Below, in pieces: positions 51,795-64,000 of a DNA stretch of 64,000 nucleotides. A model generated the notes under the pieces. It had not been told where the DNA came from and did no database searches. It saw only the letters and a program-made list of their open reading frames with translations. Each line of letters opens with the position of its first letter. The stretch's first letter is position 1. This DNA is from Streptomyces sp. NBS 14/10 (lineage in GTDB: Bacteria > Actinomycetota > Actinomycetes > Streptomycetales > Streptomycetaceae), in assembly GCF_002224125.1 (NCBI RefSeq), contig NZ_NCSM01000007.1:65839-129838 (forward strand). Direction: 5' to 3'. A program made the position numbers and the translations under genes.

Positions 51795-52108
51795 GCACCG
51801 CGCTCGACGGCCGACCCGCCGTTCCATGGACCATCACGCCCCCATCCGCAAGGCCATAGGGCAGAAGGTGGCATGAAGTCTCCATGTGCTTGAGACCGAC
51901 GTCCGCCATGCGCGACGATCGCCTACCAATGGTAACTACAGCATCATCGGAACCGCTCTGAACAGCTCGGAAGTTGCAATTAACCCCACCCCGGTGCCCT
52001 TAGGGGTGCCGATCTCTGCTCAGCTCGGCCTTCGGTGTCGTTTGGGCACCTTTTGGTGCCGGCGTGGATGAGAGGAGCTCGAAGGTGATCGTTACGGGGG
52101 AGGACGCA
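51795..52108 (+). promoter_or_regulatory. Upstream region of the response regulator with GGTGCC dyads
   Basis: A 314-bp gap of lower GC than its surroundings. GGTGCC occurs at 51992, 52004 and 52055 and its complement at 52045; GGCACC-TTTT-GGTGCC (52045-52060) is a perfect dyad, and CACCCC/GGGGTG arms flank the first pair. These could be autoregulatory sites or mRNA hairpins before the response regulator. I see no gene here. Confidence 0.45.
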
Positions 52109-52789
52109 ATGCCGATCAAGGTCCTGATCGCCGATGGACATGCCCTGGCCCGGCTGGGGCTGTTAACTCTGCTGAGCTCGGCCCCCGGGCTGCGCGCCGT
52201 CGGCGAGGCCGCCGACAGCGACGGCGCCCGCGCCCTGGCCGCCGCGCACAGCCCGGACGTCATTCTCATGGACATCTCCCTTCCACTTCTCGGGGGAATC
52301 GCCACCACCCAGCACATCGTGGAGGCCGCGCCCGCCCGGCCACCCCGCGTCATCGTCACCGCCTCGGAGGTCAGCGACGACGAGATCCAGTCCGCACTGC
52401 GCGTGGGCGCCGCCGGGATCCTGCTCAAGGACACCTCACCGCAGAAGACGATCGCCTCGATCAGCGCGGTCGCCACCGGCGATATGGCCTTCTCGCCCAG
52501 CGTGATGGAGCGGCTGATCGACGCGTACACCTACCGCGCGACGGCCACCGAGACCGCGGGGTCGACCCTGGCCATGCTGACCATGCGGGAGACCGAGGTG
52601 CTGCGGCATGTCGCCAAGGGCCGTAGCAACTCCGCCATCGCACGGGAGCTCAAAATCAGTGAGGCGACCGTGAAGACCCATCTGAACCGGGCGATGACCA
52701 AACTGGGCATCACCAGCCGGGCCCAGGCCGTGGCGCTGGGCTATGAGTGCGGTCTGGTCGTTCCCTCGCAGCCCCAACCGGTCGCCTGA
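52109..52789 (+). CDS. Orphan NarL/LuxR-type response regulator with degenerate acidic pocket
   Basis: 226 residues: receiver domain (1-120) and LuxR-type helix-turn-helix (about 165-215; LTMRETEVLRHVAKGRSN and ISEATVKTHLNRAMTKLG, cited in part). Asp55 (LMDIS) is the phosphoacceptor, Thr84 and Lys107 are conserved, but the usual DD pair reads Asp9-Gly10 (IADGH). Loss of the second acid is typical of atypical regulators that do not depend on normal Mg-assisted phosphorylation. No histidine kinase is near. GGAGG five bases before the ATG at 52109 decides the start; GTG codons at 52064 and 52085 are alternatives. It converges on the lipid operon. Confidence 0.88.
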   Translation: MPIKVLIADGHALARLGLLTLLSSAPGLRAVGEAADSDGARALAAAHSPDVILMDISLPLLGGIATTQHIVEAAPARPPRVIVTASEVSDDEIQSALRVGAAGILLKDTSPQKTIASISAVATGDMAFSPSVMERLIDAYTYRATATETAGSTLAMLTMRETEVLRHVAKGRSNSAIARELKISEATVKTHLNRAMTKLGITSRAQAVALGYECGLVVPSQPQPVA

Positions 52790-52905: not shown

Positions 52906-53361
52906 TCACTCCCGCTCCGCCACCTCCTTGATCCGGCCCAGCGTCGTACGCATCCCCTCGACCATCAGCCGCTCCCGCCGGAACCCCACCAGACCGCTGG
53001 AGTCGACCGCCCGGATCAGCAGATGGGGGCGGCCGAAGTGTTCCCGCCACTCGGTCAGCACGACGCCGTCGCCATCGCCGTCGGGTTCGATCCGATAGCC
53101 CCACCGCACCTTCGACTGCGCGACCTCGAATGCGAACACCTTCCCTTCCTCGCACTCCACGACCGTGCAGTCGGTGGTCCAGAAGATGAGCCCACGCCGG
53201 TTGCGGCCGCGGAACCGGGCCCCGAGGGCAGGCCCCGACGCCGGGGCCACCCAGCGTCCGCCCTTGCACTCGGGGCTGAACCGGCCCATGCCGGTGACAT
53301 CGGAGACCAGCCGCCACACCCGCTCGGGTGGGGCGGAGATGGTGATCGAGACCTCGTCCAC
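52906..53361 (-). CDS. SRPBCC (START/polyketide-cyclase-fold) protein
   Basis: 151 residues with the helix-grip fold: VSITISAPPERVWRLVSDV at the start and a long C-terminal helix. Such proteins bind hydrophobic ligands or act as aromatases or cyclases. The GTG at 53361 has GGGAGG about ten bases upstream. It is the last gene of the leftward lipid operon, 18 bp after the nitroreductase-like gene, so a lipid or cyclised intermediate is a fair guess for its ligand. There is no single catalytic motif to confirm. Confidence 0.85.
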   Translation of the reverse strand: MDEVSITISAPPERVWRLVSDVTGMGRFSPECKGGRWVAPASGPALGARFRGRNRRGLIFWTTDCTVVECEEGKVFAFEVAQSKVRWGYRIEPDGDGDGVVLTEWREHFGRPHLLIRAVDSSGLVGFRRERLMVEGMRTTLGRIKEVAERE

Positions 53362-53379
53362 TGCGTGCCCGCCTCCCGG

Positions 53380-54726
53380 TCAGCGCCCGTGCCAGTCCCG
53401 CATATGGGACCGGTGCACCTCGGGCACCACGGACGGGTCGTAGAACTCGTCGTAGAAGTCGACGTCGAGGTGGACGGACTGGAAGCCCATCTGCGTGTGG
53501 TACGCGGGCAGATACGAGGGGAACCGGCCGGACTTCCGGTACGTGTAGTCGCAGAAGGCCACCGTGGCGTCGATCGCCTTCTGGCTGATTCCGCTGATCC
53601 CCGCCGCCACCTTCTCCGGCTCCCGCCAGCCGCCCCGGCCGATGCCGCCGCGGTAGATGCCGTTCTCGCCGAACTTGCGCTCGACGACGGCGTGCACCGC
53701 CGCCTCCATCGACTCGTAGTACGGCGGGCAGTACGGCTTGAGCAGCACCTCGCCGTCCCGCTCCAGGCCCAGCGGATAGGGGAAGCCCGCGTCCTGGCGG
53801 CGGAGTTTGAGGACCATCTTGGCGAGCGTGGGCACCCGGAAGTACTGGCTGATCGGCATCTCGGCCATCCGGAAGTCCAGCGCCTCGAACCACCCGCCGT
53901 CGTGCCCGGTGTAGTGCGGGAAGCCGCCAAGCCCCAGCGCCTGGCTGACCAGGCCCAGGTTCTGCAGCATCATGCCCATCTCGATGCACGCCGTCTCCAC
54001 CAGAAGGCGCTCGGCGTACTCCATCGGCATGGACTTCAGCTTCCGCGGGTCGTCGTCGAGGTGGCCGCCCTTGGACTTGCCGAACTTGCCGATGCCGGCC
54101 GGCAGGAAGAACCGCCGCTCGTCCAGGCAGAAGACCGCCATCTCCTCGTTGAAGAACTCCAGCAGGATGTTGATGTAGAGGTAGGACAGGTCCTCGATCG
54201 GCAGGAAGTAGGTGGACCCGGGGGTGTGCAGCGACCATTCGTTGCCGGTGAGGTTGTACGGCGACTCCACCGGCGGATGGCGGCGCTCGCTCCCGATCTT
54301 GACCCGGGTGGCCCGGTACGCCCCGACGAAGTCGTTCTTGGCGATGAACTCCTTGACCTCGTTCAGCTCCGCCGTGGACAGATCGCCGGGCCGGCGGATC
54401 AGATAGGTGGCCTCGTCGTCCATGATCACCATCGCCCCGCTCTGGAGCGCGTCGGAGCTGGAGACGGTACGGCCGACGACGCCGGCCATCACATTGCCGC
54501 CCTTGCCCTTCTCCCAGTTCCAGTCGTTGAGCGCGGGGCCGGTGATACCGCAGGCGGCGAAGGTGAGGATCGCCTGCTCCTCCTCCGTCAGCGGCACCGG
54601 CTCGTGCTTGCTGCGGTACTCCAGCGGCCCGCCGGGGACGGTCATCCCCATGCCGAATCTACGGGCCCGGCGGGACTTCAGGCCGTCGATCAGCGGAAAG
54701 CTCTGCCAAGTGTCGCTCGCTGCCAT
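53380..54726 (-). CDS. Nitroreductase-like (SagB-type) protein, remote
   Basis: 448 residues. EEEQAILTFAACGITGPAL and GRTVSSSDALQSG resemble the entry and FMN-phosphate segments of nitroreductase/SagB proteins, and MLQNLGLVSQALGLGGF resembles the later NTR motif. A long middle region and C-terminal part (from about 330) have no match that I recognise. It could be a flavoprotein oxidase or reductase acting on the ACP-bound or released lipid. The ATG at 54726 lies inside the end of the MMPL gene (68-bp overlap) with GAGGAG upstream. Fold assignment is by motif memory and is tentative. Confidence 0.65.
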   Translation of the reverse strand: MAASDTWQSFPLIDGLKSRRARRFGMGMTVPGGPLEYRSKHEPVPLTEEEQAILTFAACGITGPALNDWNWEKGKGGNVMAGVVGRTVSSSDALQSGAMVIMDDEATYLIRRPGDLSTAELNEVKEFIAKNDFVGAYRATRVKIGSERRHPPVESPYNLTGNEWSLHTPGSTYFLPIEDLSYLYINILLEFFNEEMAVFCLDERRFFLPAGIGKFGKSKGGHLDDDPRKLKSMPMEYAERLLVETACIEMGMMLQNLGLVSQALGLGGFPHYTGHDGGWFEALDFRMAEMPISQYFRVPTLAKMVLKLRRQDAGFPYPLGLERDGEVLLKPYCPPYYESMEAAVHAVVERKFGENGIYRGGIGRGGWREPEKVAAGISGISQKAIDATVAFCDYTYRKSGRFPSYLPAYHTQMGFQSVHLDVDFYDEFYDPSVVPEVHRSHMRDWHGR

Positions 54727-57040
54727 GGTCTTGCGTGCTCCTCGTTTTTGAGGTTCTTGAGTTGTCGGCCGCGGATGTGGCTGCGGATGAGGCGCGGCCG
54801 CGGCCGGGGAACCACCAGTTGGCCGAGCCCATGAGCTTCATGGCGGCCGGTACGACGAACATCCGCACCAGCGTGGCGTCCACGGCGATCGCCACCGCCA
54901 TGCCGAAGCCCAGCTCGCCGATGGGCTGGATCCCGGAGAGGGTGAAGCCGCCGAACACCGCCACCATCAGCACCGCCGCCCCGGTGATCAGCGGGCCCGT
55001 GGCGGAGATGCCGAGCGCCACGCTCTCGGTGTTGCCGAGCCCCGCCTTGTAGTACTCGCGCACCCGGCCCAGCACGAACACCTCGTAGTCGGTGGACAGG
55101 CTGAACAGCAGGGCGAGCAGGAGCACGGGGACGAAGTTGGTGACCCGGCCGGACGCGTCAAAGCCCAGCGCCTCCGCCACCGGGCTGTCCTCCTTGAAGG
55201 CGAGGGCCAGCATGCCGAACGCCACGGACACCGAGAACACATTGACCAAGATGGCCTTCAGCGGCAGCAGCACCGAGCGGAACGACAGCATCAGGATGAC
55301 GAAGATCGCGAGCAGCATCACCCCGACGACCGTGGGCAGTCCGTCGGAGATCACCTCGTTGGCGTCCACGCCCTCGGCGGTCTGCCCGCCGATCTCGATA
55401 CGCAGCCCGTCGCCGTCGGCCCGCGCCGCCACCCGCCGGACGTCCGCGAGCAGCCCGCGCGTCTCGGACGAGGAGGCGTGCTCCTCGGGGATCACCTGGG
55501 CGATGAACTTGGTGCGGTCCTTGGAGACGAAGTACCCCACCGAGGCGCGGACGGGGTCCGGCAGCCGGTCGCGCACGGCGGGTTCGAGCGCGTCGAACGG
55601 GCGCCCCGGAGCCGCCTGTTCCAGGGCGTCGAGCGCGGAGTCCACCCGCCGGACGTGCCCCAGGCCGGCCAGTTCGTCCCGTAGCTCGGCGATCCGCCCG
55701 CCCTCGCCGCGCAGCGGGGTGTCGGAGCGGATCAGCACCACCATCGGGGAGGCGTCGCCCGGCCCGAACTGCTCCTCCACCCGGTCGTAGGACTGGCGCA
55801 CGGTCGACGAGGTGGGGGTGATCTTGGCGTCCGGGGTGAAGGTGTCCAGGGCCAGGGCCGGGACGGCGCCCACCGCCAGCAGGGCGGTGCCCGCCAGCAG
55901 GGAGAGCACCGGCCGGCGCAGCACCCAGTGGGCGAAGCGGTACCAGCCGCGCTCGCGGGGGTCCGCGGTGGCGCTCGCCGGGCGGAGCTTGGCGAACAGG
56001 TCCCAACGCCCGATCCGGGGGCCGACCGCGTACAGCAGCACCGGCAGCAGCAGGACGCTGGTGAGCACCGACACCGCGACGACCAGCGCGGCGCCGAGGG
56101 CGATCGACTGGATGACCGGCAGGTTGACGAAGGCCAGCGTGGCCATGGACACGATGACGGTCACACCGGAGGCGACCACGGTCTCCCCGGAGGTGGCGAG
56201 CGCGATCCGCAGGGCGCGCGGGACCGGCTCGCCGCCTTCGAGTTCGTCCCGGAAGCGGCGGATCATGAACATCGAGTAGTCGATGCCGACGCCGAGACCC
56301 AGCATGGTCGCGGTGTTCTGGACGAACACCGACAGGTCGTAGGAGTCGGCGAGCACGGACAGGATCGCGAAGGTGACGACCGCCGCCGTACCCGCGGTGA
56401 TCATGGCGACCACCGCGGAGACCACGCTGCGGAACAGCAGCAGCAGGATGAGGGTGATCAGCGGCATCACGATGATCTCCGCCTTGACCAGGCCCTCTTC
56501 GCTCAGGACGTTGATCTCGCCGAAGAACGGGGCCGTGCCCACCATGCCGACGGTCAGGCCCCGCGCCTCGTACCGCTTGTCGAACTCCCGCTGGATGTCG
56601 GGGAGGATCCGCCGGGCGGTGCCGTCGTCCACATCGAGGCCGAACATCTCGATCGCGGTGTGGCCGTCCCGGCCGACGAACGCGTTCTTGGGCGCGCCCT
56701 GGAGGGTGGTCCACCCGTAGTGCGAGGCGGCCTTGAGCCGTTTGTCGCCCTCGATGTCGGCCATGGCCTGGCGTACTCGACGCTCGAAGGCGTCCGTGCC
56801 GGTGGCGTGGCGCTTGTCGTGGACGACCACCGTGACACTCGTCTGGCCGCGGCCGGTGAACCCCTCCTTCTGCTGCTCCGCCACCCAGGTGGACTGTGAG
56901 CCGGGGACATACCAGCCGCCGCCGCTCAGCTTGTCCGGCAGCGACAGCGCGAGCAGCCCGCTGATCACCAGCAGCGCGCCCCACACCGCCAGCAACGGCC
57001 AACGCACCCGGCCGATGAACGCTACGAACCGCTCCGTCAC
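54659..57040 (-). CDS. MMPL-family lipid/RND transporter
   Basis: 793 residues with twelve helices in two repeats, each with a large extracytoplasmic loop between its first two helices, as in MmpL/RND proteins. Characteristic segments are GLGVGIDYSMFMIRRFRDEL in the first repeat and ALLFSLSTDYEVFVLGRVRE in the second, both with proton-relay Asp-Tyr pairs. Such proteins export complex lipids and polyketides. GGGGAGAG precedes the GTG at 57040. It is the only membrane protein in the operon and so the likely exporter of its product. Confidence 0.94.
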   Translation of the reverse strand: MTERFVAFIGRVRWPLLAVWGALLVISGLLALSLPDKLSGGGWYVPGSQSTWVAEQQKEGFTGRGQTSVTVVVHDKRHATGTDAFERRVRQAMADIEGDKRLKAASHYGWTTLQGAPKNAFVGRDGHTAIEMFGLDVDDGTARRILPDIQREFDKRYEARGLTVGMVGTAPFFGEINVLSEEGLVKAEIIVMPLITLILLLLFRSVVSAVVAMITAGTAAVVTFAILSVLADSYDLSVFVQNTATMLGLGVGIDYSMFMIRRFRDELEGGEPVPRALRIALATSGETVVASGVTVIVSMATLAFVNLPVIQSIALGAALVVAVSVLTSVLLLPVLLYAVGPRIGRWDLFAKLRPASATADPRERGWYRFAHWVLRRPVLSLLAGTALLAVGAVPALALDTFTPDAKITPTSSTVRQSYDRVEEQFGPGDASPMVVLIRSDTPLRGEGGRIAELRDELAGLGHVRRVDSALDALEQAAPGRPFDALEPAVRDRLPDPVRASVGYFVSKDRTKFIAQVIPEEHASSSETRGLLADVRRVAARADGDGLRIEIGGQTAEGVDANEVISDGLPTVVGVMLLAIFVILMLSFRSVLLPLKAILVNVFSVSVAFGMLALAFKEDSPVAEALGFDASGRVTNFVPVLLLALLFSLSTDYEVFVLGRVREYYKAGLGNTESVALGISATGPLITGAAVLMVAVFGGFTLSGIQPIGELGFGMAVAIAVDATLVRMFVVPAAMKLMGSANWWFPGRGRASSAATSAADNSRTSKTRSTQDHGSERHLAELSADRRPEVPPGP

Positions 57041-57080
57041 GTGGTCTCTCCCCGGCTTCTTCCAATATCTGTGTCGGCGA

Positions 57081-58283
57081 TCAGTAGACCGTGGTGTCCA
57101 GGTCCTCGCCCAGGAAGTAACCGGCCAGTGCGGGCAGCGCCTTGGCCCGCGCCGGCGGGTGGAACGCCAGGGCGCGCGTGGCCTGCAGCAGATAGCCGAC
57201 CTCGGTGTCGCGGATGAAGGAGATACCGCCCGCCAGCTCGCTGGCGGCCGTGGACACCTCCATCACCGACTCCTGGACCTGGAAGCGGGCCAGCAGTGAG
57301 CGGGCCAGCTGGTCGCCCGGGTCCTCGACGGACGCGGTCATGTCCCGCGCCACGTTCTCCACGGCGCCCATGGAGCTCTCCAGCTTCACCAGCAGGGCGC
57401 CCACCTCGGCGCGCGAGACCCGCGGGGAGGCCATCGCCTTCTCCACGAGCGTGCTCGCCACCCCCACGTACGAGGCCGCGGCCAGCAGCTCGAACCAGGT
57501 CCAGCCGCGGACCTGGAGGGTGTCCATCTGGGTGCCGGGGCGCTGGTCGGTGAAGACCATCAGCGACTCGTCCAGGACCAGGTCCTCCAGGATGACCTCG
57601 TCGCTCTCGGCGCCGGCCAGCACCTCGCTCTCCCAGAACGGGCGCCGCACCAGGCCCTCGGTCGCGGCGGGCACCAGGGCCATGGCCAGATGGCCGTCGT
57701 ACTTCTCGTCACCCTCCACCAGCACGCTGGCGGTGAACCAGTCCATCGACGCGGACAGGCTGCACGGCTTCTTGCTGCCGCTGATGATGAAGTTCGTACC
57801 GTCCCGGCGGGCGCGCATGGTCGGCGCCAGCATGCTGGCGCCCCGCTTGGCCTCGGCGGAGGCCGAGGCGACCAGCTGCTTCTCCCCCGCGATCGACTTG
57901 AGCAGGATCCACTCGAATGCGTCGGGGGCGCAGTGCTCGGTCAGATACTCGGTGAAGGTGGCCAGCGAGAGCTGGTGCATCATCGCGGCGACCGCCAGCG
58001 AGGGCGAGCGCATGGCCAGCGCCCGCTGGACGCGGACGGCGTCCAGCGGCTCGGCGCCCAGGCCGTCGTGCTCGGCGGGCACCAGCAGCCCGGCCCCGCC
58101 GGCCTCCCGGAACGCCGGGATGGCCGGGCCACCCCGCTTCTCGAGATCCGCCAGCGAATGGGCGGCCAGCTTCTCGTCGAGCCCGGGGAGCAGCCGCTCC
58201 AGCACCGCGCGCTCCCGCGCCCCGAGACGGCCCGCTGCGGACGAGGCTGCGGACGGAGCTGCGGACGATTGGGTGTCGGTCAT
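57081..58283 (-). CDS. Acyl-CoA dehydrogenase-like flavoprotein
   Basis: 400 residues matching the acyl-CoA dehydrogenase fold: an N-terminal helical domain, middle beta domain (IISGSKKPCSLSASMDWF) and C-terminal helical bundle. The catalytic base Glu is not obvious in the C-terminal half, so it may oxidise an acyl-ACP, or act as an N- or C-hydroxylase like other members in biosynthetic clusters. GGAG precedes the ATG; the gene begins 6 bp after the methyltransferase stop. Confidence 0.85.
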   Translation of the reverse strand: MTDTQSSAAPSAASSAAGRLGARERAVLERLLPGLDEKLAAHSLADLEKRGGPAIPAFREAGGAGLLVPAEHDGLGAEPLDAVRVQRALAMRSPSLAVAAMMHQLSLATFTEYLTEHCAPDAFEWILLKSIAGEKQLVASASAEAKRGASMLAPTMRARRDGTNFIISGSKKPCSLSASMDWFTASVLVEGDEKYDGHLAMALVPAATEGLVRRPFWESEVLAGAESDEVILEDLVLDESLMVFTDQRPGTQMDTLQVRGWTWFELLAAASYVGVASTLVEKAMASPRVSRAEVGALLVKLESSMGAVENVARDMTASVEDPGDQLARSLLARFQVQESVMEVSTAASELAGGISFIRDTEVGYLLQATRALAFHPPARAKALPALAGYFLGEDLDTTVY

Positions 58284-58289
58284 GGTGAA

Positions 58290-59387
58290 CTACTCCGGCT
58301 TCGCTACGACGGCACAGACAGGGGAGAAGCCGCGGTGCACGGCTTCGAGGCGGAATCCGGCGGACGCGAGCAGCGCCTTGATCTCCGGCTCGGTACGCAG
58401 CTCACCGCCGCTGACGACCAGGCACTCGATATCGCCGAGGGTGGCGAAGGAGGGGGTGCCGTTGCGCGGGATCACCATGTCGAACAGGACCAGGGTGCCG
58501 TCCTCGCCCATGGCGGCCCGGCAGTTCTCCAGCAGCTTGCGGGCCTTGTCGTCGTTGTAGTCGTTGAGGACCATCGACAGCAGATAGCAGTCGCCGCCCT
58601 CGGGCACCGACTCGAACATGTCCCCGGGTACGAAGTCGACGCGCTCGGCGTGCCCGGCCTCGCCCAGCAGCTTCTTGGCGCCGGCCACCACCCGCTCGCG
58701 GTCGAACAGCACACCGCGCAGGTCGGCGTGGGTCTCCAGCAGGTTGGACAGCACCACGCCCGCGCCGCCGCCGACGTCCACGACCACCTTGTGCTGCCCG
58801 AAGTCGTGCAGCGATACGGCCAGCAGCTGGGCCTGCGAGGCCATGGCCGTCATCGCATGGTCGAAGAGGTCGCCCTCCTCGGGGTGCTTGTCGATGTACT
58901 CGTAGTACGGCGAGCCGTGGTGGTCGGAGAAGGCCTCGCCGCCCTTGCGCACCGCCTCCGGGGCCAGCGACCACGGGTCCCAGTGCCAGCGCGAGCTGTG
59001 CAGCATGGCGTTGTAACGCATCGAGAACGGGTAGTCGGTGCGCAGGAAGTGTCCGGCCTCGGTCAGCGCGAACGTCTCGTCCTCGGCGTGGTCGAGCACC
59101 CGCAGCGTGGCCGCCGCCCGCAGCACCCGGTACAGCGCCCGCGGGTCCACCTCGTGCTGCTTGGCCAGGTCCTCGGCGCTGCGCGGGCCGTCGGCGAGCG
59201 AGTCGGGGACGCCCAGGGTGGCGAGGGTGCCGACCACCTGGGTGCCCCAGTGGCCCAGGATCAGCTGCATGAGGCCGGCGACGGGGAGCACGGAGTGCGC
59301 TATGACGTCGACCGGTTTCAGCTGTTCGTCGGCGGAGGAATCGCCGGAGGACTCGGCGGAGGAATCGGCTTGCTCGGTCATACTCAT
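58290..59387 (-). CDS. SAM-dependent methyltransferase, OMT fold with altered catalytic His
   Basis: 365 residues: N-terminal dimerisation domain (about 25-120) and C-terminal Rossmann domain with SAM motif VVVDVGGGAGVVL (201-213). In the catalytic segment, where plant and bacterial O-methyltransferases read LHDW, this protein reads LNDY (274-277): Asn275 replaces the His base. It may methylate N or C, use a different base, or act noncanonically. A 20-residue Ser/Asp-rich lead precedes the fold. The ATG at 59387 overlaps the ligase stop (ATGA); ATG at 59381 has better ribosome-site spacing. Confidence 0.88.
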   Translation of the reverse strand: MSMTEQADSSAESSGDSSADEQLKPVDVIAHSVLPVAGLMQLILGHWGTQVVGTLATLGVPDSLADGPRSAEDLAKQHEVDPRALYRVLRAAATLRVLDHAEDETFALTEAGHFLRTDYPFSMRYNAMLHSSRWHWDPWSLAPEAVRKGGEAFSDHHGSPYYEYIDKHPEEGDLFDHAMTAMASQAQLLAVSLHDFGQHKVVVDVGGGAGVVLSNLLETHADLRGVLFDRERVVAGAKKLLGEAGHAERVDFVPGDMFESVPEGGDCYLLSMVLNDYNDDKARKLLENCRAAMGEDGTLVLFDMVIPRNGTPSFATLGDIECLVVSGGELRTEPEIKALLASAGFRLEAVHRGFSPVCAVVAKPE

Positions 59388-61117
59388 CCTTCCTCGGGGC
59401 GCTGCGGGCGGTGGGCGACCACTTCGCCGGGCAGTTCCTGGTCCAAGTACTGGGTCAACATGAGGCGGCGCCGGGGCTTGCCGCTGGAGGTGCGCTGGAT
59501 GGTGCCGCGTCGGCAGCTGAAGACGGTGACGTCCACGACGCCGCCGATGTAGAGGGACAGCGCCTCGGCCAGCCGCTCGGCCCAGTCCCCCGGCTCCAGT
59601 TCGGCGAGCACCACGATCCGGCGGGCGTCGACGAGGGTGGCGCAGCGGTAGCGGTCCACGCCGGGGGTGTCACCGAGCCGGGCGTCCAGGTCCTCGGCGT
59701 AGATGTTGCGGCCGCGGACGCTCAGGGCGTCGCCCAGCCGGCCGATGACATACGTCTGGCCGTCCAGCAGGAACCCGGCGTCTCCGGAGTACACACTGCC
59801 GTCCGCGAACCGGGACGAGCTCTCGGCGTCCGGCGGCTCGTACCCGGCGGCCACGCTGTCGCCGGACAGCAGGAGTTCGCCGAGATAGCCGTCGGGCAGC
59901 GGCCGGCCCTCGGTGTCCACGGCGGTCAGCGAGACGCCCTCGATCGGGGTCCCCGAGCTGACCAGCCACTGGGCCGGGCTGTCGGCCGCGCCCGCGTCCC
60001 GCAGGGTGCCGCGGGCGAGGATCTTGACCGGCTGCTCCGGGGCCAGCGACTCCCAGTCGAGGTGGACCGCCTGCGGTACGGTGCCCGGCGCGTGTCCGGT
60101 GATCCCGAGCGTCATCTCGGCCATGCCGTAGCAGGGCGTGAAGACGGCGGGGTCGAAGCCGTACGGCTCGCACAGCTCGGTGAACTCCCACAGCCCCCGC
60201 GGATCGTGGCGCTCCGCGCCCAGGGTGGCCGAGCGCAGGGTGGAGAAGTCGGCGCCCTTCAGGTCCTCGGGCTTGAGCCTGCGGGCCGCGTACGCGAATC
60301 CGAAGGACGGCGCCGCGGTGTACGCCATCCCCTCCCGGGCGATGCAGTCGATCCAGCGCCGGGGGTCGTAGATGAACTGCTCCGGGCGCATCAGGGACAG
60401 ATCGCCCTGCTGGGACACGATGGTCATCAGACAGCCCACGAGCCCCAGGTCGTGGTACATCGGCACCCAGCTGACGGTCTGCAGCGCGCCGTCGTAGTCG
60501 ATCAGCCGGCTGTTGCCGCGGGCGTTGGCCTCCATGTTCGCCCAGGTGATGCGCACCCCGCGGGGGCTGCTGGTCGAGCCGGAGGTGAACTGGAGGGTGG
60601 CCAGTTCGGTGGCGGGGACCGCGCTGAGCCGGTCGGTCTCGGTGCCGGTGGAGAAGTCGCTGGAGAGCACGGCGACCGGAGCGCCGCCGTCCTCGCCCGC
60701 CGCGTCGGCGGCGGCAGCGGCTTCGGTCAGGATCGACAGATGCACCGGGTCGCCGACCACCGCCGAGGCGCGGGTCAGCCGCAGGACGCGGGCGACATGG
60801 CGTACGTAGTCCTCGCGGCCGCCGAAGCGGGCGGGCGGCGCGATGGCCGTCGGGACAAGCCCCGCGTTGACCGCGCCGAAGTAACCGGTGACGAAGCCGA
60901 CGCTGTTGGGCGTGGCCAGCACCACGCCCGGGCGGTCCTTCCGCGCCCGGGCGCGGAAGGCCGCGCTGGCCAGGGAGACCAGATGGGCCAGATCGGCGTA
61001 GCTGTAGCGGTCCCACTCGCCCGAGCCCCGCGCGAAGCGCATACCGCGGTCGGTGCGCGGGTCGACCAGCCAGGACAGCAGCGGTGAGGGAGCGGCGCCG
61101 GGCGACGCACCGGTCAC
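59384..61117 (-). CDS. Fatty acyl-AMP ligase (FAAL)
   Basis: 577-residue adenylate-forming enzyme. The P-loop is LQFTSGSTSSPRGV and the hinge/A-motifs include WVPMYHDLGLVG, YGMAEMT and YSGDAGFLLDG; the terminal SSGKPRR holds the catalytic Lys. The LQFTSGSTSSPRGV form and MYHDLGLVG point to the FAAL branch, which transfers acyl-AMP to an ACP phosphopantetheine, not to CoA. The GTG at 61117 overlaps the stop of the alpha-oxoamine synthase gene (GTGA). A second ligase of the same kind begins off the right edge. Confidence 0.92.
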   Translation of the reverse strand: MTGASPGAAPSPLLSWLVDPRTDRGMRFARGSGEWDRYSYADLAHLVSLASAAFRARARKDRPGVVLATPNSVGFVTGYFGAVNAGLVPTAIAPPARFGGREDYVRHVARVLRLTRASAVVGDPVHLSILTEAAAAADAAGEDGGAPVAVLSSDFSTGTETDRLSAVPATELATLQFTSGSTSSPRGVRITWANMEANARGNSRLIDYDGALQTVSWVPMYHDLGLVGCLMTIVSQQGDLSLMRPEQFIYDPRRWIDCIAREGMAYTAAPSFGFAYAARRLKPEDLKGADFSTLRSATLGAERHDPRGLWEFTELCEPYGFDPAVFTPCYGMAEMTLGITGHAPGTVPQAVHLDWESLAPEQPVKILARGTLRDAGAADSPAQWLVSSGTPIEGVSLTAVDTEGRPLPDGYLGELLLSGDSVAAGYEPPDAESSSRFADGSVYSGDAGFLLDGQTYVIGRLGDALSVRGRNIYAEDLDARLGDTPGVDRYRCATLVDARRIVVLAELEPGDWAERLAEALSLYIGGVVDVTVFSCRRGTIQRTSSGKPRRRLMLTQYLDQELPGEVVAHRPQRPEEG

Positions 61118-62358
61118 GGGGTGTCCGCCTTCCGCTTCATCACCTTCTGCACCTCGGCGAACACTTCGAGGGCCTGTTCCAGCTGGGCCTGGGTGTGGGT
61201 GGCCATCGGGCAGATCCGCAGCATGGCGCCCGTCGGCGGAACACCCGGGTACAGCGCCACACCGGTGAACACCCCGCGGTCGTACAGCTGCCGCCACCAC
61301 TCCATGGCCAGGTCGTCGTCGCCGAGGATGACCGGGATGATGGGGGTCGTCCGCTCGGGCAGGTCCGAGTCGGGGCCCATCGGCAGGCCAAGGCCCTTGA
61401 GTTCGGTGCGCAGAAAGCGGGAGTTGCGGCGCAGCTGCTCGGCGAGTTGGTCGCCTTCGGGCGAGCGGCGGATACGTATGGCCTCCAGCGAACCGCCCAG
61501 GGCCGCCGGGACGCCGACCGTGGTGAACACGAAGGCGCGCGCGGTGATCTGGAGGTAGTCGATCAGCTCGCGGCTGCCGGCGATGAACCCGCCGACGCCG
61601 GCCAGCGCCTTGGACAGGGCGCCCATCCGGATGTCGATCTGGTCCTGGACGCCGAAGACCTCGGCCGCGCCGGTGCCGTGCTCGCCGAGCACACCGAGGG
61701 AGTGCGCCTCGTCCAGCATCACCGCCGCGTCGTTCTCGCGGCAGATGTCCAGCATCTCGTCCAGCGGCGGCAGGTCCCCCTCCATCGAGTACAGCCCGTC
61801 GAGGATGACCAGGATCCGGCCGCCGTCGGCCTTGGCCCGGCGGACGCTGTCGGCGAACAGATCCATCCGGTTGTGCCGGAAGCCGCGCAGCTTGGCCCGG
61901 GAGAGCCCGGCCCCGTCGAGCATCGAGGCGTGTGCGAAGGAGTCGGACACCACGGTGTCGCCCACGCCCACCAGGGCGCTGATGGTGCCGATGTTGGTCT
62001 GGAAGCCGGTGGTGAACAGCAGGGTGGACTCGACGCCCAGCCAGTCCGCCAGCTCCTCCTCCATCTCCCGGTGCAGGGCCGTGGTGCCGTTGAGGATCCG
62101 GGAGCCGGTGAGCGAGGTGCCGTAGCGGTCCACCGCGGCCTTGGCGCCGGCCAGCACACGGGGATGGCTGGCCAGGCCCAGGTAGTTGGGCGACCCCAGC
62201 ATCAGCCGCGGTGTGCCCTCCATGGTGACGACCGGGTCCAGCAGGGATTCCGCGTTACGGAAGAACGGCAGGTTTCCGTTGGCGACGCCGCGGTGGTACG
62301 CGGTGACGAACTCCGACGACTGCAGGTCCTTGAGCCAACTCGCCGTGTACTCAGGCAT
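61114..62358 (-). CDS. Alpha-oxoamine synthase (SPT/KBL/AONS family)
   Basis: 414-residue PLP enzyme that joins an acyl thioester to an amino acid with loss of CO2, giving an alpha-aminoketone. Lys250 (GALSKALAGVGG) is the Schiff-base lysine; Asp216 and His219 (LDEAHS) contact the cofactor, and SNYLGL-type PNYLGLASHP and GSRILNGT are conserved. It resembles serine palmitoyltransferase, KAPA synthase and ALA synthase; the amino acid cannot be told. The start overlaps the ACP gene by 8 bp. A stand-alone enzyme next to an ACP favours an acyl-ACP substrate. Confidence 0.93.
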   Translation of the reverse strand: MPEYTASWLKDLQSSEFVTAYHRGVANGNLPFFRNAESLLDPVVTMEGTPRLMLGSPNYLGLASHPRVLAGAKAAVDRYGTSLTGSRILNGTTALHREMEEELADWLGVESTLLFTTGFQTNIGTISALVGVGDTVVSDSFAHASMLDGAGLSRAKLRGFRHNRMDLFADSVRRAKADGGRILVILDGLYSMEGDLPPLDEMLDICRENDAAVMLDEAHSLGVLGEHGTGAAEVFGVQDQIDIRMGALSKALAGVGGFIAGSRELIDYLQITARAFVFTTVGVPAALGGSLEAIRIRRSPEGDQLAEQLRRNSRFLRTELKGLGLPMGPDSDLPERTTPIIPVILGDDDLAMEWWRQLYDRGVFTGVALYPGVPPTGAMLRICPMATHTQAQLEQALEVFAEVQKVMKRKADTP

Positions 62359-62650
62359 GGTGGTCCCCCTCGGCCTCGGTCCCCGCGCCGCCGCCGGACA
62401 CGCGCACGATGTAGTCGATGGCGTCCCCTACGGTGCGGAGGTCGATGGCGTCCTCTTCGCCGATCTTCACGTGGAAGGTGTCCTCGAGCTCCTGGGTGAG
62501 GGTGAGGATGTCGAGCGAGTCGATGCCGAGGTCGGCCTTCCAGGTCGCGCCGCGCACGATGCGCTCGGCGGACACCCCGCGGACCGTCAAGTGGTCCGTG
62601 ATCACCTTCATGACCTCGTCATCCGTCACCCGGGTCGACTGCTCTGCCAT
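62351..62650 (-). CDS. Acyl carrier protein 2
   Basis: 99 residues, four-helix ACP with the phosphopantetheine Ser45 in LGIDSLDI (42-49). The C-terminal tail is long and acidic/His-containing (EAEGDHHA). The start shares one base with the desaturase stop (TGATG). Its position between the desaturase and the alpha-oxoamine synthase suggests it presents the acyl chain to the synthase. Canonical DSL motif, unlike ACP 1. Confidence 0.94.
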   Translation of the reverse strand: MAEQSTRVTDDEVMKVITDHLTVRGVSAERIVRGATWKADLGIDSLDILTLTQELEDTFHVKIGEEDAIDLRTVGDAIDYIVRVSGGGAGTEAEGDHHA

Positions 62651-63465
62651 CACGCGTCCTCTCCTTGGTCCTGACCGTCCCGGCGTAGTTGTCCCCGGGC
62701 CCTGACCAGATCGCGGCGGCTGACGCCGACCTTCTTGAGCGTCGGCATCAGGACGTCGCGGAAGAACACCTCGCGGTCGATGCCGATGACCTGCATCACG
62801 GCCAGCCGCTTGTCGTAGTCGGGCAGCAGGTCGTAGGCCGGCATCTTGAATTCCTTGACCACATACGCGATGTCCTTGAGCGTGCCCTCGTAGTCCTCCT
62901 GAAGGCATGCCTGGAGCGTGCGCCGGTAGAAATCCGCGTGCGCGGCCTCGTCCCGCGCGATGTAGCGGCAAATCTCGGCCATCACCGGATCGCCGAGGTC
63001 ACGCGCCCGGTTCAGCTGCTGCCGATAGCTCATCCAGGTCGTCTTCTCCTGGATGGCGCCGTACACGAACATTCTGCGCGGCGTGGAAAACGGCATCGTC
63101 CACCGCCGGCTGAGCACCCTCTTCTCGAATTCCCGGACCTGCTTGTCGGTGCGCTGTCCGGTGCGCAGCAGGAATTCCTTCAGGGCGAGCGCGTGCTTGG
63201 ACTCCTCATAGCCCCAGTTGACCTGGAACCACGCCTGTCCGAAGGACTCTCGTACGACATTGAGCCCTTCGGCCACATAGTCCGGCAGATACATCTCGAC
63301 GCCGAGGAAAGTCTCCGCGCACTGGGCCAGGCTCTCGTCCCGGCTCTGCTCCTGCCATTTGTCCCACGGAATATCGTCGAAGACACTCCAGCGGCGGCGG
63401 CGCTCGGCGAGTTCGAAGAACTCCATGTACTGCCGGTACAGCGTCTCCTCGGGAAGGAGGTCCAC
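62650..63465 (-). CDS. Soluble acyl-ACP desaturase-like diiron protein
   Basis: 271-residue ferritin-like helical bundle of the stearoyl-ACP desaturase family. The two ExxH motifs are ESKH (88-91) and EAAH (173-176); Glu51 and Glu140 are the likely remaining diiron ligands. It would insert a double bond (or hydroxylate) an acyl chain held on one of the adjacent ACPs. The GTG at 63465 starts 3 bp after the ACP 1 stop. I considered an AurF-like N-oxygenase, but the ESKH/EAAH spacing fits the desaturase family better. Confidence 0.9.
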   Translation of the reverse strand: MDLLPEETLYRQYMEFFELAERRRRWSVFDDIPWDKWQEQSRDESLAQCAETFLGVEMYLPDYVAEGLNVVRESFGQAWFQVNWGYEESKHALALKEFLLRTGQRTDKQVREFEKRVLSRRWTMPFSTPRRMFVYGAIQEKTTWMSYRQQLNRARDLGDPVMAEICRYIARDEAAHADFYRRTLQACLQEDYEGTLKDIAYVVKEFKMPAYDLLPDYDKRLAVMQVIGIDREVFFRDVLMPTLKKVGVSRRDLVRARGQLRRDGQDQGEDA

Positions 63466-63468
63466 GGC

Positions 63469-63741
63469 TCAGCCCTCCCGGACCGCGGGCTTACCGCCCC
63501 GGATCAGTTCGACGACATCGCCGACGGTGCTGACCCCGAACAGCACGTCGTCGTCGAAGCTGAGCCCGGTCTGGTCCTCGATGGAGACGATCAGCTCGAG
63601 GGTGGCCACCGAGTCGAGGCCGATCTCCCCGATGTCGTCCGCCAGCGTGAACGTACGCTCCGCCAGCCGGGCGTCCACCTGCGCCGCGGCCGTGGCGACG
63701 ATGCTGAGCGCTTCTTCTTCCGTCAGATCGGCGGTCGTCAC
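63469..63741 (-). CDS. Acyl carrier protein 1
   Basis: 90 residues; the phosphopantetheine Ser44 lies in GLDSVATLEL, a DSV rather than DSL motif, and helix 2 differs from ACP 2. It probably receives its chain from the neighbouring fatty acyl-AMP ligase. The GTG start overlaps that ligase's stop (GTGA), and the desaturase gene follows directly. Confidence 0.93.
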   Translation of the reverse strand: MTTADLTEEEALSIVATAAAQVDARLAERTFTLADDIGEIGLDSVATLELIVSIEDQTGLSFDDDVLFGVSTVGDVVELIRGGKPAVREG

Positions 63742-64000
63742 TTGGCTCCTCCATGGCCCGCGGGGCCGTTGTGGGAATACGCGCCCTGGGAATACGCGTC
63801 GCGGCAGGCGGCGCGCCGCAGTTTGCCGCTGCTGGTCTTGGGCAGCGTGCCGGGCTTCACCAGCACCACGTCGTCGGGCGTCACCCCGACCGCACCGCGG
63901 ACCCGGGTGGCGATCTGCTTCGCGAGATCCGGGGGCGAACTCGCCGGTTTGTGCTCGGCGACCACCACCAGGCGCTCGTCGGGGGTGGAGAACGCGATCA
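63738..64000 (-). CDS. Fatty acyl-AMP ligase, C-terminal part (cut by window edge)
   Basis: Only the last 87 or so residues are present. The C-terminal lid domain of an adenylate-forming ligase is clear: RLVVVAEHKPAS, GVTPDDVVLVKPGTLPKTSS and the catalytic-Lys segment TSSGKLRR. The GVTPDDVVLV and LPKTSSGKLRR forms match FAAL-type enzymes. The stop overlaps the ACP 1 start by 4 bp. The gene and probably the operon's promoter lie beyond the right edge. Confidence 0.88.
   Translation of the reverse strand, partial: IAFSTPDERLVVVAEHKPASSPPDLAKQIATRVRGAVGVTPDDVVLVKPGTLPKTSSGKLRRAACRDAYSQGAYSHNGPAGHGGAK

What the first reader, a model, noticed from the sequence alone, without database searches (positions are those of the whole stretch)
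52906..64000. Uncharacterised lipid-amine operon: two FAALs, two ACPs, diiron desaturase, alpha-oxoamine synthase, MMPL exporter
Eleven consecutive minus-strand genes have overlaps or gaps of at most about 40 bp. Established family functions suggest a route. A FAAL activates a fatty acid and loads it on an ACP. The soluble desaturase modifies the chain. The alpha-oxoamine synthase condenses it with an amino acid to an alpha-aminoketone. A methyltransferase, an acyl-CoA dehydrogenase-like protein and a nitroreductase-like flavoprotein tailor it, and MMPL exports it. Caulobacter sphingolipid genes (serine palmitoyltransferase, ACP, acyl-ACP synthetase) are a partial precedent, but desaturase, MMPL, methyltransferase and nitroreductase-like genes are not part of it. 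I cannot match the set to a known product. The 5' end is outside the window.
Basis: partly seen in the sequence, partly recalled or inferred. Interest (0 to 1): 0.88.

Follow-up and report, generated by a model that had tools for sequence, protein, structure and literature searches.

The report
Streptomyces operon for exported sphingoid-like lipid
Eleven tightly packed genes in a Streptomyces genome are predicted to load fatty acids onto carrier proteins, join one to an amino acid to make a sphingosine-like amino-ketone, likely oxidise and methylate it, and export it; the whole set recurs in one named Streptomyces species and most of it in another, and I found no described product for it.

Summary
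In detail: eleven consecutive minus-strand genes, 52906 to about 65411 (1.4 kb of the leading FAAL gene lies right of the window), junctions -68 to +40 nt. All eleven recur in the same order in S. sparsogenes ATCC 25498; nine are visible in S. milbemycinicus before its contig ends; database listings suggest a Nocardia tengchongensis contig with at least three. The family calls were mostly right. New here: (1) the alpha-oxoamine synthase falls with serine palmitoyltransferases, and ACP2-AOS-FAAL2 parallels the AcpR/SPT/AasR trio that makes 3-oxo-sphinganine in Rhodobacteria; (2) the 'acyl-CoA dehydrogenase' lacks the usual catalytic glutamate and, as a profile, sits nearest DszC and DnmZ, so it is more likely a flavin monooxygenase, perhaps oxidising the amine; (3) relatives of these two genes are neighbours in several other actinobacterial genomes, so they look like partners; (4) the 448-aa protein without Pfam match has a predicted nitroreductase fold; (5) FAAL-ACP-desaturase sets occur in two other Streptomyces loci. 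No azoxy-core, PKS or (of the kind tested) ceramide-synthase genes are present. Product, amino acid and the job of the second FAAL are untested. Verdict: a real, rare, apparently undescribed lipid operon; new variant of a known kind.

The parts
63738..64000 (-). FAAL1, fatty acyl-AMP ligase, first gene of the operon; continues outside the window to about 65411 (557 aa in all)
   Evidence: best solved relatives are fatty acyl-AMP ligases (3pbk 3.4e-96, FadD32 and others), first acyl-CoA synthetase 9.9e-30
63469..63741 (-). ACP1, acyl carrier protein, DSV motif at residue 43
   Evidence: PP-binding 5.3e-10; motif
62650..63465 (-). DES, soluble diiron acyl-ACP desaturase family (FA_desaturase_2), ExxH motifs at 88 and 173
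   Evidence: PF03405 5.7e-25; stearoyl-ACP desaturase 1afr 4.6e-13; motifs
62351..62650 (-). ACP2, acyl carrier protein, DSL motif at residue 44; overlaps AOS by 8 nt
   Evidence: PP-binding 7.8e-10
61114..62358 (-). AOS, alpha-oxoamine synthase of serine-palmitoyltransferase type
   Evidence: solved relatives: SPT 3a2b 282 bits, SPT 2x8u 244, KBL 3tqx 242; tree; GSRxLNGT motif at 85
59384..61117 (-). FAAL2, second, more divergent fatty acyl-AMP ligase
   Evidence: FAALs rank first (3pbk 9.6e-55), first CoA ligase 8.5e-16; TSGST and SSGK motifs
58290..59387 (-). MT, O-methyltransferase of the Methyltransf_2 family with dimerisation domain
   Evidence: PF00891 2.6e-39, PF08100 2.4e-10
57081..58283 (-). 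Flavoprotein ('ACAD'), acyl-CoA-dehydrogenase superfamily without the YEGT glutamate; likely group-D flavin monooxygenase
54659..57040 (-). MMPL, RND-type lipid exporter
   Evidence: PF03176 5.4e-87, two stretches; the genome has 49 MMPL-matching stretches
53380..54726 (-). NR, 448-aa protein of predicted nitroreductase fold with a large insertion; no Pfam or NCBIfam family
52906..53361 (-). SRPBCC, Polyketide_cyc2 lipid-binding-type protein, last gene
   Evidence: PF10604 8.1e-19

Best explanation
This eleven-gene Streptomyces operon is predicted to make and export a sphingoid-like lipid amine: two fatty acyl-AMP ligases would load fatty acids on two carrier proteins, and a serine-palmitoyltransferase-like enzyme would condense one acyl chain with an amino acid, likely L-serine, to a 2-amino-3-ketone. 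Inferred steps, in order: FAAL1 charges ACP1 and DES sets a double bond in the ACP1-bound chain (FAAL-ACP-desaturase sets also occur in two other Streptomyces loci); FAAL2 charges ACP2, and AOS, encoded between them, takes an acyl-ACP and releases the free aminoketone with loss of CO2; the acyl-CoA-dehydrogenase-type flavoprotein, which lacks the usual dehydrogenase base, oxygenates the product, most likely at the nitrogen, with reduced flavin; NR is a second flavin enzyme (flavin supply or a dehydrogenation); MT O-methylates a hydroxyl (of the serine-derived carbon or of an oxidised nitrogen); the SRPBCC protein holds or cyclises the lipid; MMPL exports it. Shown here: gene order, family membership, the SPT-like placement, the missing glutamate, the predicted nitroreductase fold, recurring neighbours. 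Not shown: any substrate, any product, which of the two acyl-ACPs AOS uses.
Against: No relative of the GNAT or of the epimerase-type reductase that neighbour AOS elsewhere is found in the window, the extension or the S. sparsogenes stretch L032, so a full ceramide-like lipid is not supported. The monooxygenase reading is not firm: with the single sequence an acyl-CoA dehydrogenase (1ukw, 2.1e-8) ranks just above the KijD3-type proteins (5.6e-8); the DszC profile matches cover only the first two thirds, DnmZ the length; NCBIfam puts FadE16 or RedW or PigA first; and of five other superfamily proteins in the glutamate test one has E, two Q and two P at that column, so a proline there is not unique. 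This genome has a second flavoprotein copy (43%) with no AOS match in the 19 kb read, so the pairing is not obligatory. The AOS scores below every NCBIfam SPT cut-off (344.6 of 640, 330.5 of 500, 269.1 of 670), and deep forks of the tree are weak. The g4 and g12 groups are unnamed. The structure model of the flavoprotein failed (pLDDT 38.5). No acceptor for a second acyl chain is evident.
Confidence: 0.5

Rival explanations
1. The operon makes a small heterocycle (alkyl-oxazole, pyrrole, pyrroline or pyrazine) rather than a sphingoid: the aminoketone is acylated from the second FAAL/ACP pair and cyclised by the SRPBCC protein, and the nitroreductase-fold enzyme aromatises the ring as ThcOx and BmdC do for azolines (their reactions recalled).
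Confidence: 0.2
2. The flavoprotein is a true acyl-ACP dehydrogenase and the operon makes a poly-unsaturated, O-methylated aminoketone without nitrogen oxidation.
For: Acyl-CoA_dh_M and _N domains; the best single-sequence PDB match is an acyl-CoA dehydrogenase; RedW/PigA, carrier-protein dehydrogenases, rank high in NCBIfam. The window copy has a glutamate at 265. A proline at the YEGT column also occurs in two other superfamily proteins.
Against: Position 376 is an invariant proline in the family; glutamate 265 is glycine in all six distant relatives of that alignment; no Acyl-CoA_dh_1 match; profile order.
Confidence: 0.24
3. An aliphatic azoxy (elaiomycin or azodyrecin-like) pathway.
For: A fatty chain, a putative desaturase, a methyltransferase and a flavin monooxygenase also occur in azodyrecin clusters (PMC9379638, passages).
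Against: The VlmO family (DUF4260), VlmA family (LPG_synthase_C) and VlmB are the conserved core (PMC9379638 and PMC11705231, passages); none of the eleven proteins matches DUF4260 or LPG_synthase_C in Pfam at 1e-3.
Confidence: 0.03

Closest known systems
AcpR / SPT / AasR trio of rhodobacterial sphingolipid synthesis (PMC9386255, passages seen)
   Same: A dedicated ACP, a dedicated acyl-ACP synthetase and an SPT-type oxoamine synthase encoded together; here ACP2, AOS and FAAL2 are contiguous and overlap.
   Different: Actinobacterial; a second FAAL/ACP pair with a desaturase; methyltransferase, flavoenzymes and MMPL in the same operon; no GNAT or epimerase-type reductase of the kinds tested.
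SgaAB polyketide-derived sphinganines of Pseudomonas (PMC12134224, abstract and passages)
   Same: Oxoamine synthase with SPT activity in a secondary-metabolite cluster.
   Different: Chain comes from an iterative PKS; here FAALs are present and no PKS domain.
FAAL-ACP-desaturase sets such as JamA/JamB with a desaturase in jamaicamide (PMC11837247, one passage)
   Same: FAAL loads an ACP and a desaturase works on the carrier-bound chain.
   Different: Here the desaturase is the soluble FA_desaturase_2 type and an oxoamine synthase follows, not a PKS. That the jamaicamide enzyme is of the membrane type is recalled.
Group-D flavin monooxygenases DszC, DnmZ and KijD3-type proteins
   Same: Best profile matches of the flavoprotein.
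   Different: 31-43% identical to its own actinobacterial relatives outside the cluster, only remote to these enzymes; substrate unknown. The class name is recalled.
ThcOx and BmdC azoline oxidases and small nitroreductases
   Same: Predicted fold of NR.
   Different: A large insertion; 448 aa; no sequence family; 10-18% identity in the top five rows.

Membership tests
SPT-AcpR-AasR sphingolipid trio | SPT-type alpha-oxoamine synthase | tested here: met
   but below NCBIfam equivalog cut-offs
SPT-AcpR-AasR sphingolipid trio | ACP and acyl-ACP synthetase genes next to it | tested here: met
   ACP2 overlaps AOS by 8 nt, FAAL2 by 4 nt
SPT-AcpR-AasR sphingolipid trio | L-serine as amino donor, acyl-ACP as acyl donor | not testable with these tools
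   needs enzyme assay
Ceramide-type sphingolipid pathway | GNAT-type N-acyltransferase and epimerase-type reductase as seen near AOS relatives | tested here: not met
   tblastn of the L142 GNAT and L168 epimerase against window, L009, L010, L032: none at 1e-3; other acyltransferase or reductase kinds, and the rest of the genome, not tested
Aliphatic azoxy clusters | VlmO (DUF4260) and VlmA (LPG_synthase_C) | tested here: not met
   no such Pfam match in the eleven proteins
SgaAB PKS sphinganines | iterative type I PKS beside the oxoamine synthase | tested here: not met
   no PKS domain among the eleven proteins
Acyl-CoA dehydrogenase (flavoprotein 57081-58283) | catalytic glutamate (YEGT position; role recalled) | tested here: not met
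   invariant P376 in nine family members; of five other superfamily proteins aligned, one has E, two Q, two P there. E265 only in the three cluster orthologues
Group-D flavin monooxygenase (flavoprotein) | closest relatives are known group-D monooxygenases | tested here: inconclusive
   profile: DszC x3, DnmZ, 3m9v, 4kcf fill the top six, the last two level with the first dehydrogenase; single sequence: a dehydrogenase first
Group-D flavin monooxygenase (flavoprotein) | reduced-flavin-dependent oxygenation with a reductase partner | not testable with these tools
   NR could be one; inference only
Nitroreductase fold (NR) | fold | tested here: met
Fatty acyl-AMP ligase (FAAL1, FAAL2) | closer to FAALs than to acyl-CoA ligases | tested here: met
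Soluble acyl-ACP desaturase (DES) | two ExxH diiron motifs in the FA_desaturase_2 domain | tested here: met

The most novel reading that the evidence does not exclude
Actinobacteria have an unrecognised sphingoid pathway built on an SPT-like enzyme and a partner flavin N-oxygenase: in the Streptomyces operon it yields an exported lipid whose amine is turned into a hydroxylamine, oxime, nitroso or nitro group and O-methylated, and in unnamed relatives of the same class the SPT/oxygenase pair (with MMPL or an epimerase-type reductase) makes related lipids.
Probability: 0.22. Interest if true: 0.82.

Novelty: new variant of a known kind. Interest (0 to 1): 0.6.

Why it matters
[quoted passage not shown] A self-contained, exported, FAAL-fed version in Streptomyces, with a flavoenzyme partner that recurs beside SPT-like genes in other actinobacterial genomes, would point to a new family of lipid natural products and give a marker pair (AOS plus flavoprotein) for finding more.

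Tried and rejected
Azoxy pathway: considered because of the monooxygenase-like flavoprotein and desaturase; rejected for lack of VlmO/VlmA families. Classic ceramide pathway: no relative of the GNAT or epimerase tested in reach. Prodiginine-like pyrrole route: the flavoprotein resembles RedW/PigA only weakly and no PKS domain is present. Canonical dehydrogenase: see the glutamate test, which is less sharp than I first wrote, because two of five comparison proteins also have a proline there; for that reason I moved the dehydrogenase rival up and the novel case down a little.

Structure of the flavoprotein: an alignment of three sequences gave pLDDT 38.5; discarded, not searched. NR as a marker of the whole operon: of the 53 loci, two (L031, L032) hold the operon; of the other 51, 48 show no other operon protein at 1e-5 in the stretch held, and L075 (AOS 35%), L077 (FAAL1 24%) and L080 (FAAL1 35% over 119 aa) show one weak hit each; NR looks recruited from a broad family. 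NR relatives in 31 other Streptomyces are 25-36% identical and not orthologues; 19 of them were read with 1.5-kb flanks and show no operon neighbour. Desaturase as marker: 373 of 392 Streptomyces have some match at 1e-3, but beside the window's own only G190 (53%) and G150 (48%) are close, with no AOS match in the 20 kb and the 7.9-kb contig read; 1 of 396 phylum genomes at 1e-50, the window's own. AOS at 1e-90: 1 of 61 relatives, own; at 1e-85: 17 of 376 in the phylum, own included.

Seven aimed at this gene set: searches gave no paper, one unrelated, (66 papers, 20 listed; 31 papers, 15 listed) were seen as listings. Searches looked for azoxy, Caulobacter and ceramide-synthase papers. No paper was read whole. 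MIBiG and antiSMASH are not on hand. The library lacks most subscription journals. Promoter and terminator scan: no more than chance.
Full report
WHAT IS THERE. The window is bases 65839-129838 of contig C95 of a 12.1-Mb genome. Eleven minus-strand genes run from 52906 to the window's end and on to about 65411; junctions are -4, +3, -1, -8, -4, -4, +6, +40, -68, +18 nt. In order of transcription: FAAL1, ACP1, DES, ACP2, AOS, FAAL2, MT, flavoprotein ('ACAD'), MMPL, NR, SRPBCC. Upstream, a divergent FAD-binding/BBE oxidase (about 65768-67444) comes next; downstream a convergent LuxR-type response regulator (52064-52789) faces the operon.

CONSERVATION. S. sparsogenes ATCC 25498 has all eleven genes in the same order at 76-92% protein identity, S. 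milbemycinicus NRRL 5739 nine of eleven at 93-99% before its contig ends. DNA synteny with S. sparsogenes goes on downstream, with gaps, at least to 44212 where the stretch held ends, and upstream to 67440, over the divergent oxidase; there it breaks and resumes at about 76430. So the operon sits in a shared chromosomal stretch, not in an obvious recent insertion. It is rare: NR above 36% identity in 1 of 392 sampled Streptomyces genomes, the window's own; DES better than 1e-50 in 3 of 392 and in 1 of 396 over the phylum; AOS at 1e-90 in 1 of 61 near genomes. Protein listings give NR (63%), DES (68%) and AOS (75%) relatives named Nocardia tengchongensis whose longest contig is 458,052 bases in each case, which suggests one locus; AOS/DES relatives share contig lengths of 2,099 and 14,213 bases in metagenomes. 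I could not read those contigs.

ACYL SUPPLY. Both AMP-ligases are FAAL-type: fatty acyl-AMP ligases and FAAL-type domains fill the top of the PDB lists and CoA ligases come far lower. Both ACPs keep a DS[VL] motif. DES is of the soluble acyl-ACP desaturase family with two ExxH motifs. FAAL, ACP and DES relatives (DES 53% and 48%) stand together in two other Streptomyces (G190, G150) without an AOS match in what I read; in G150 a methyltransferase-like gene (by eye) lies between FAAL and ACP. FAAL1-ACP1-DES therefore may be a transferable module for an unsaturated acyl-ACP (inference).

THE CARBON-NITROGEN STEP. Among solved structures AOS is nearest to one serine palmitoyltransferase (3a2b, 282 bits); a second SPT (2x8u, 244) and KBL (3tqx, 242) are level. 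It has the GSRxLNGT motif that both SPT chains in that output show and the KBL and BioF/KBL chains do not. In a 51-row tree it lies within a 39-row actinobacterial clade (support 99) in a 42-row group with the two SPT references (87) and without the KBL and BioF/KBL references; several branches are long and the deepest forks are weak. Eight loci of that clade from same-phylum, other-class genomes were read: a GNAT gene is directly beside AOS in six (L141, L142, L143, L144, L147, L148), 3.6 kb away in one (L149) and not seen in one (L145); L146, outside the clade, has a 32% GNAT 3.5 kb away. Named database relatives at similar identity (52-54%) are mostly Solirubrobacterales. ACP2-AOS-FAAL2 thus parallels AcpR-SPT-AasR, shown in Rhodobacteria to make 3-oxo-sphinganine from acyl-AcpR (PMC9386255, abstract and passages). 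L-serine as donor is an inference.

THE FLAVOPROTEIN. Its Pfam matches are the N and middle domains of acyl-CoA dehydrogenases, not the C-terminal one. In an alignment of nine family members with five other superfamily proteins from fetched loci, the YEGT glutamate of one of the five falls on an invariant proline of an FHPP motif; two of the five have glutamine and two proline there. The other candidate, E265, is glycine in the six distant relatives. That YEGT carries the catalytic base of common acyl-CoA dehydrogenases, and that isovaleryl-type enzymes have it elsewhere, is recalled. A nine-sequence profile finds DszC and DnmZ before any acyl-CoA dehydrogenase, with 3m9v/4kcf (KijD3, recalled) level with the first dehydrogenase; the DszC matches stop before the C-terminal domain, the DnmZ match covers the length. 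The single sequence does not separate them, and NCBIfam lists FadE16, RedW or PigA first. DnmZ and KijD3 oxidise amino-sugar nitrogen (recalled). I therefore favour a monooxygenase, with nitrogen as the likely site because the substrate at hand is an amine; this is the least certain step.

PARTNERSHIP. In group g12 (37 genomes) the flavoprotein's relative occurs in 27; in all 7 that I read (G661, G951, G953, G954, G973, G975, G984) it stands beside an AOS of the same clade. Six of the seven were picked by the flavoprotein, G661 by AOS; a second flavoprotein gene in G973 was not read. In group g4 (150 genomes) 9 have the AOS; 3 of the 9 (G803, G865, G901) have the flavoprotein next to it, a fourth (G933) has flavoprotein-MMPL-AOS in a row, and 4 of 9 (G847, G858, G872, G933) have MMPL next to AOS. 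G821 and G879 show neither in 19 kb; G847 and G901 were read with 1.5-kb flanks only. No shuffled-genome control was run for these adjacencies. Against: the window's genome has a second flavoprotein copy with no AOS match in 19 kb. Kinship labels are the tool's (same class, family f3); no names are given.

REMAINING GENES. MT is a Methyltransf_2 O-methyltransferase; SRPBCC a Polyketide_cyc2 protein; MMPL an RND exporter; the genome has 49 MMPL-matching stretches.

VERDICT. It is best read as a variant of the FAAL/ACP/SPT logic with its own tailoring and export. Product and most steps are predictions.

Noticed in passing
L142:7393-9840; also L141, L143, L144, L147, L148 (adjacent) and L149 (3.6 kb away): SPT-like AOS genes of same-phylum, other-class genomes have a ~390-aa GNAT gene beside them in 6 of 8 in-clade loci read; looks like an undescribed sphingolipid or ceramide-type locus.
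   Followed up: partly
L169, L170, L171 (and L140:6939-11923): In group g12 an epimerase-type gene (36-37% to the L168 protein) directly follows the SPT-like AOS in three loci and faces it about 1.3 kb away in L140, with the flavoprotein on the other side: a compact three-gene candidate lipid pathway.
   Followed up: partly
window 53380-54726 (family): A nitroreductase-fold family with no Pfam or NCBIfam model, 1742 relatives, found in Streptomyces, Nocardia, Natrialba, Verrucomicrobia, Acidobacteria and others.
   Followed up: partly
L010:2607-4283 (window coordinates about 65768-67444, outside): Divergent FAD_binding_4/BBE oxidase with a twin-arginine-like leader, conserved beside the operon in S. 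sparsogenes; may belong to the pathway.
   Followed up: partly
L114:7760-10574 and L115:2114-5654: FAAL, ACP and desaturase relatives together in two other Streptomyces; by eye one lies among ketosynthase-like genes and a second desaturase-like gene, the other beside methyltransferase-like and acyl-CoA-oxidase-like genes.
   Followed up: no
G000:C58:77999-79105 (L174:8988-10151): Second, apparently solitary copy of the flavoprotein (43%) in the same genome.
   Followed up: partly
L166:3681-10570: A g4 locus with ACP, AMP-ligase, an acyl-CoA dehydrogenase with C-terminal domain match, MMPL and AOS in a row, followed by relatives of MPAB-type oxygenases (by similarity): another possible exported aminoketone lipid.
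   Followed up: no
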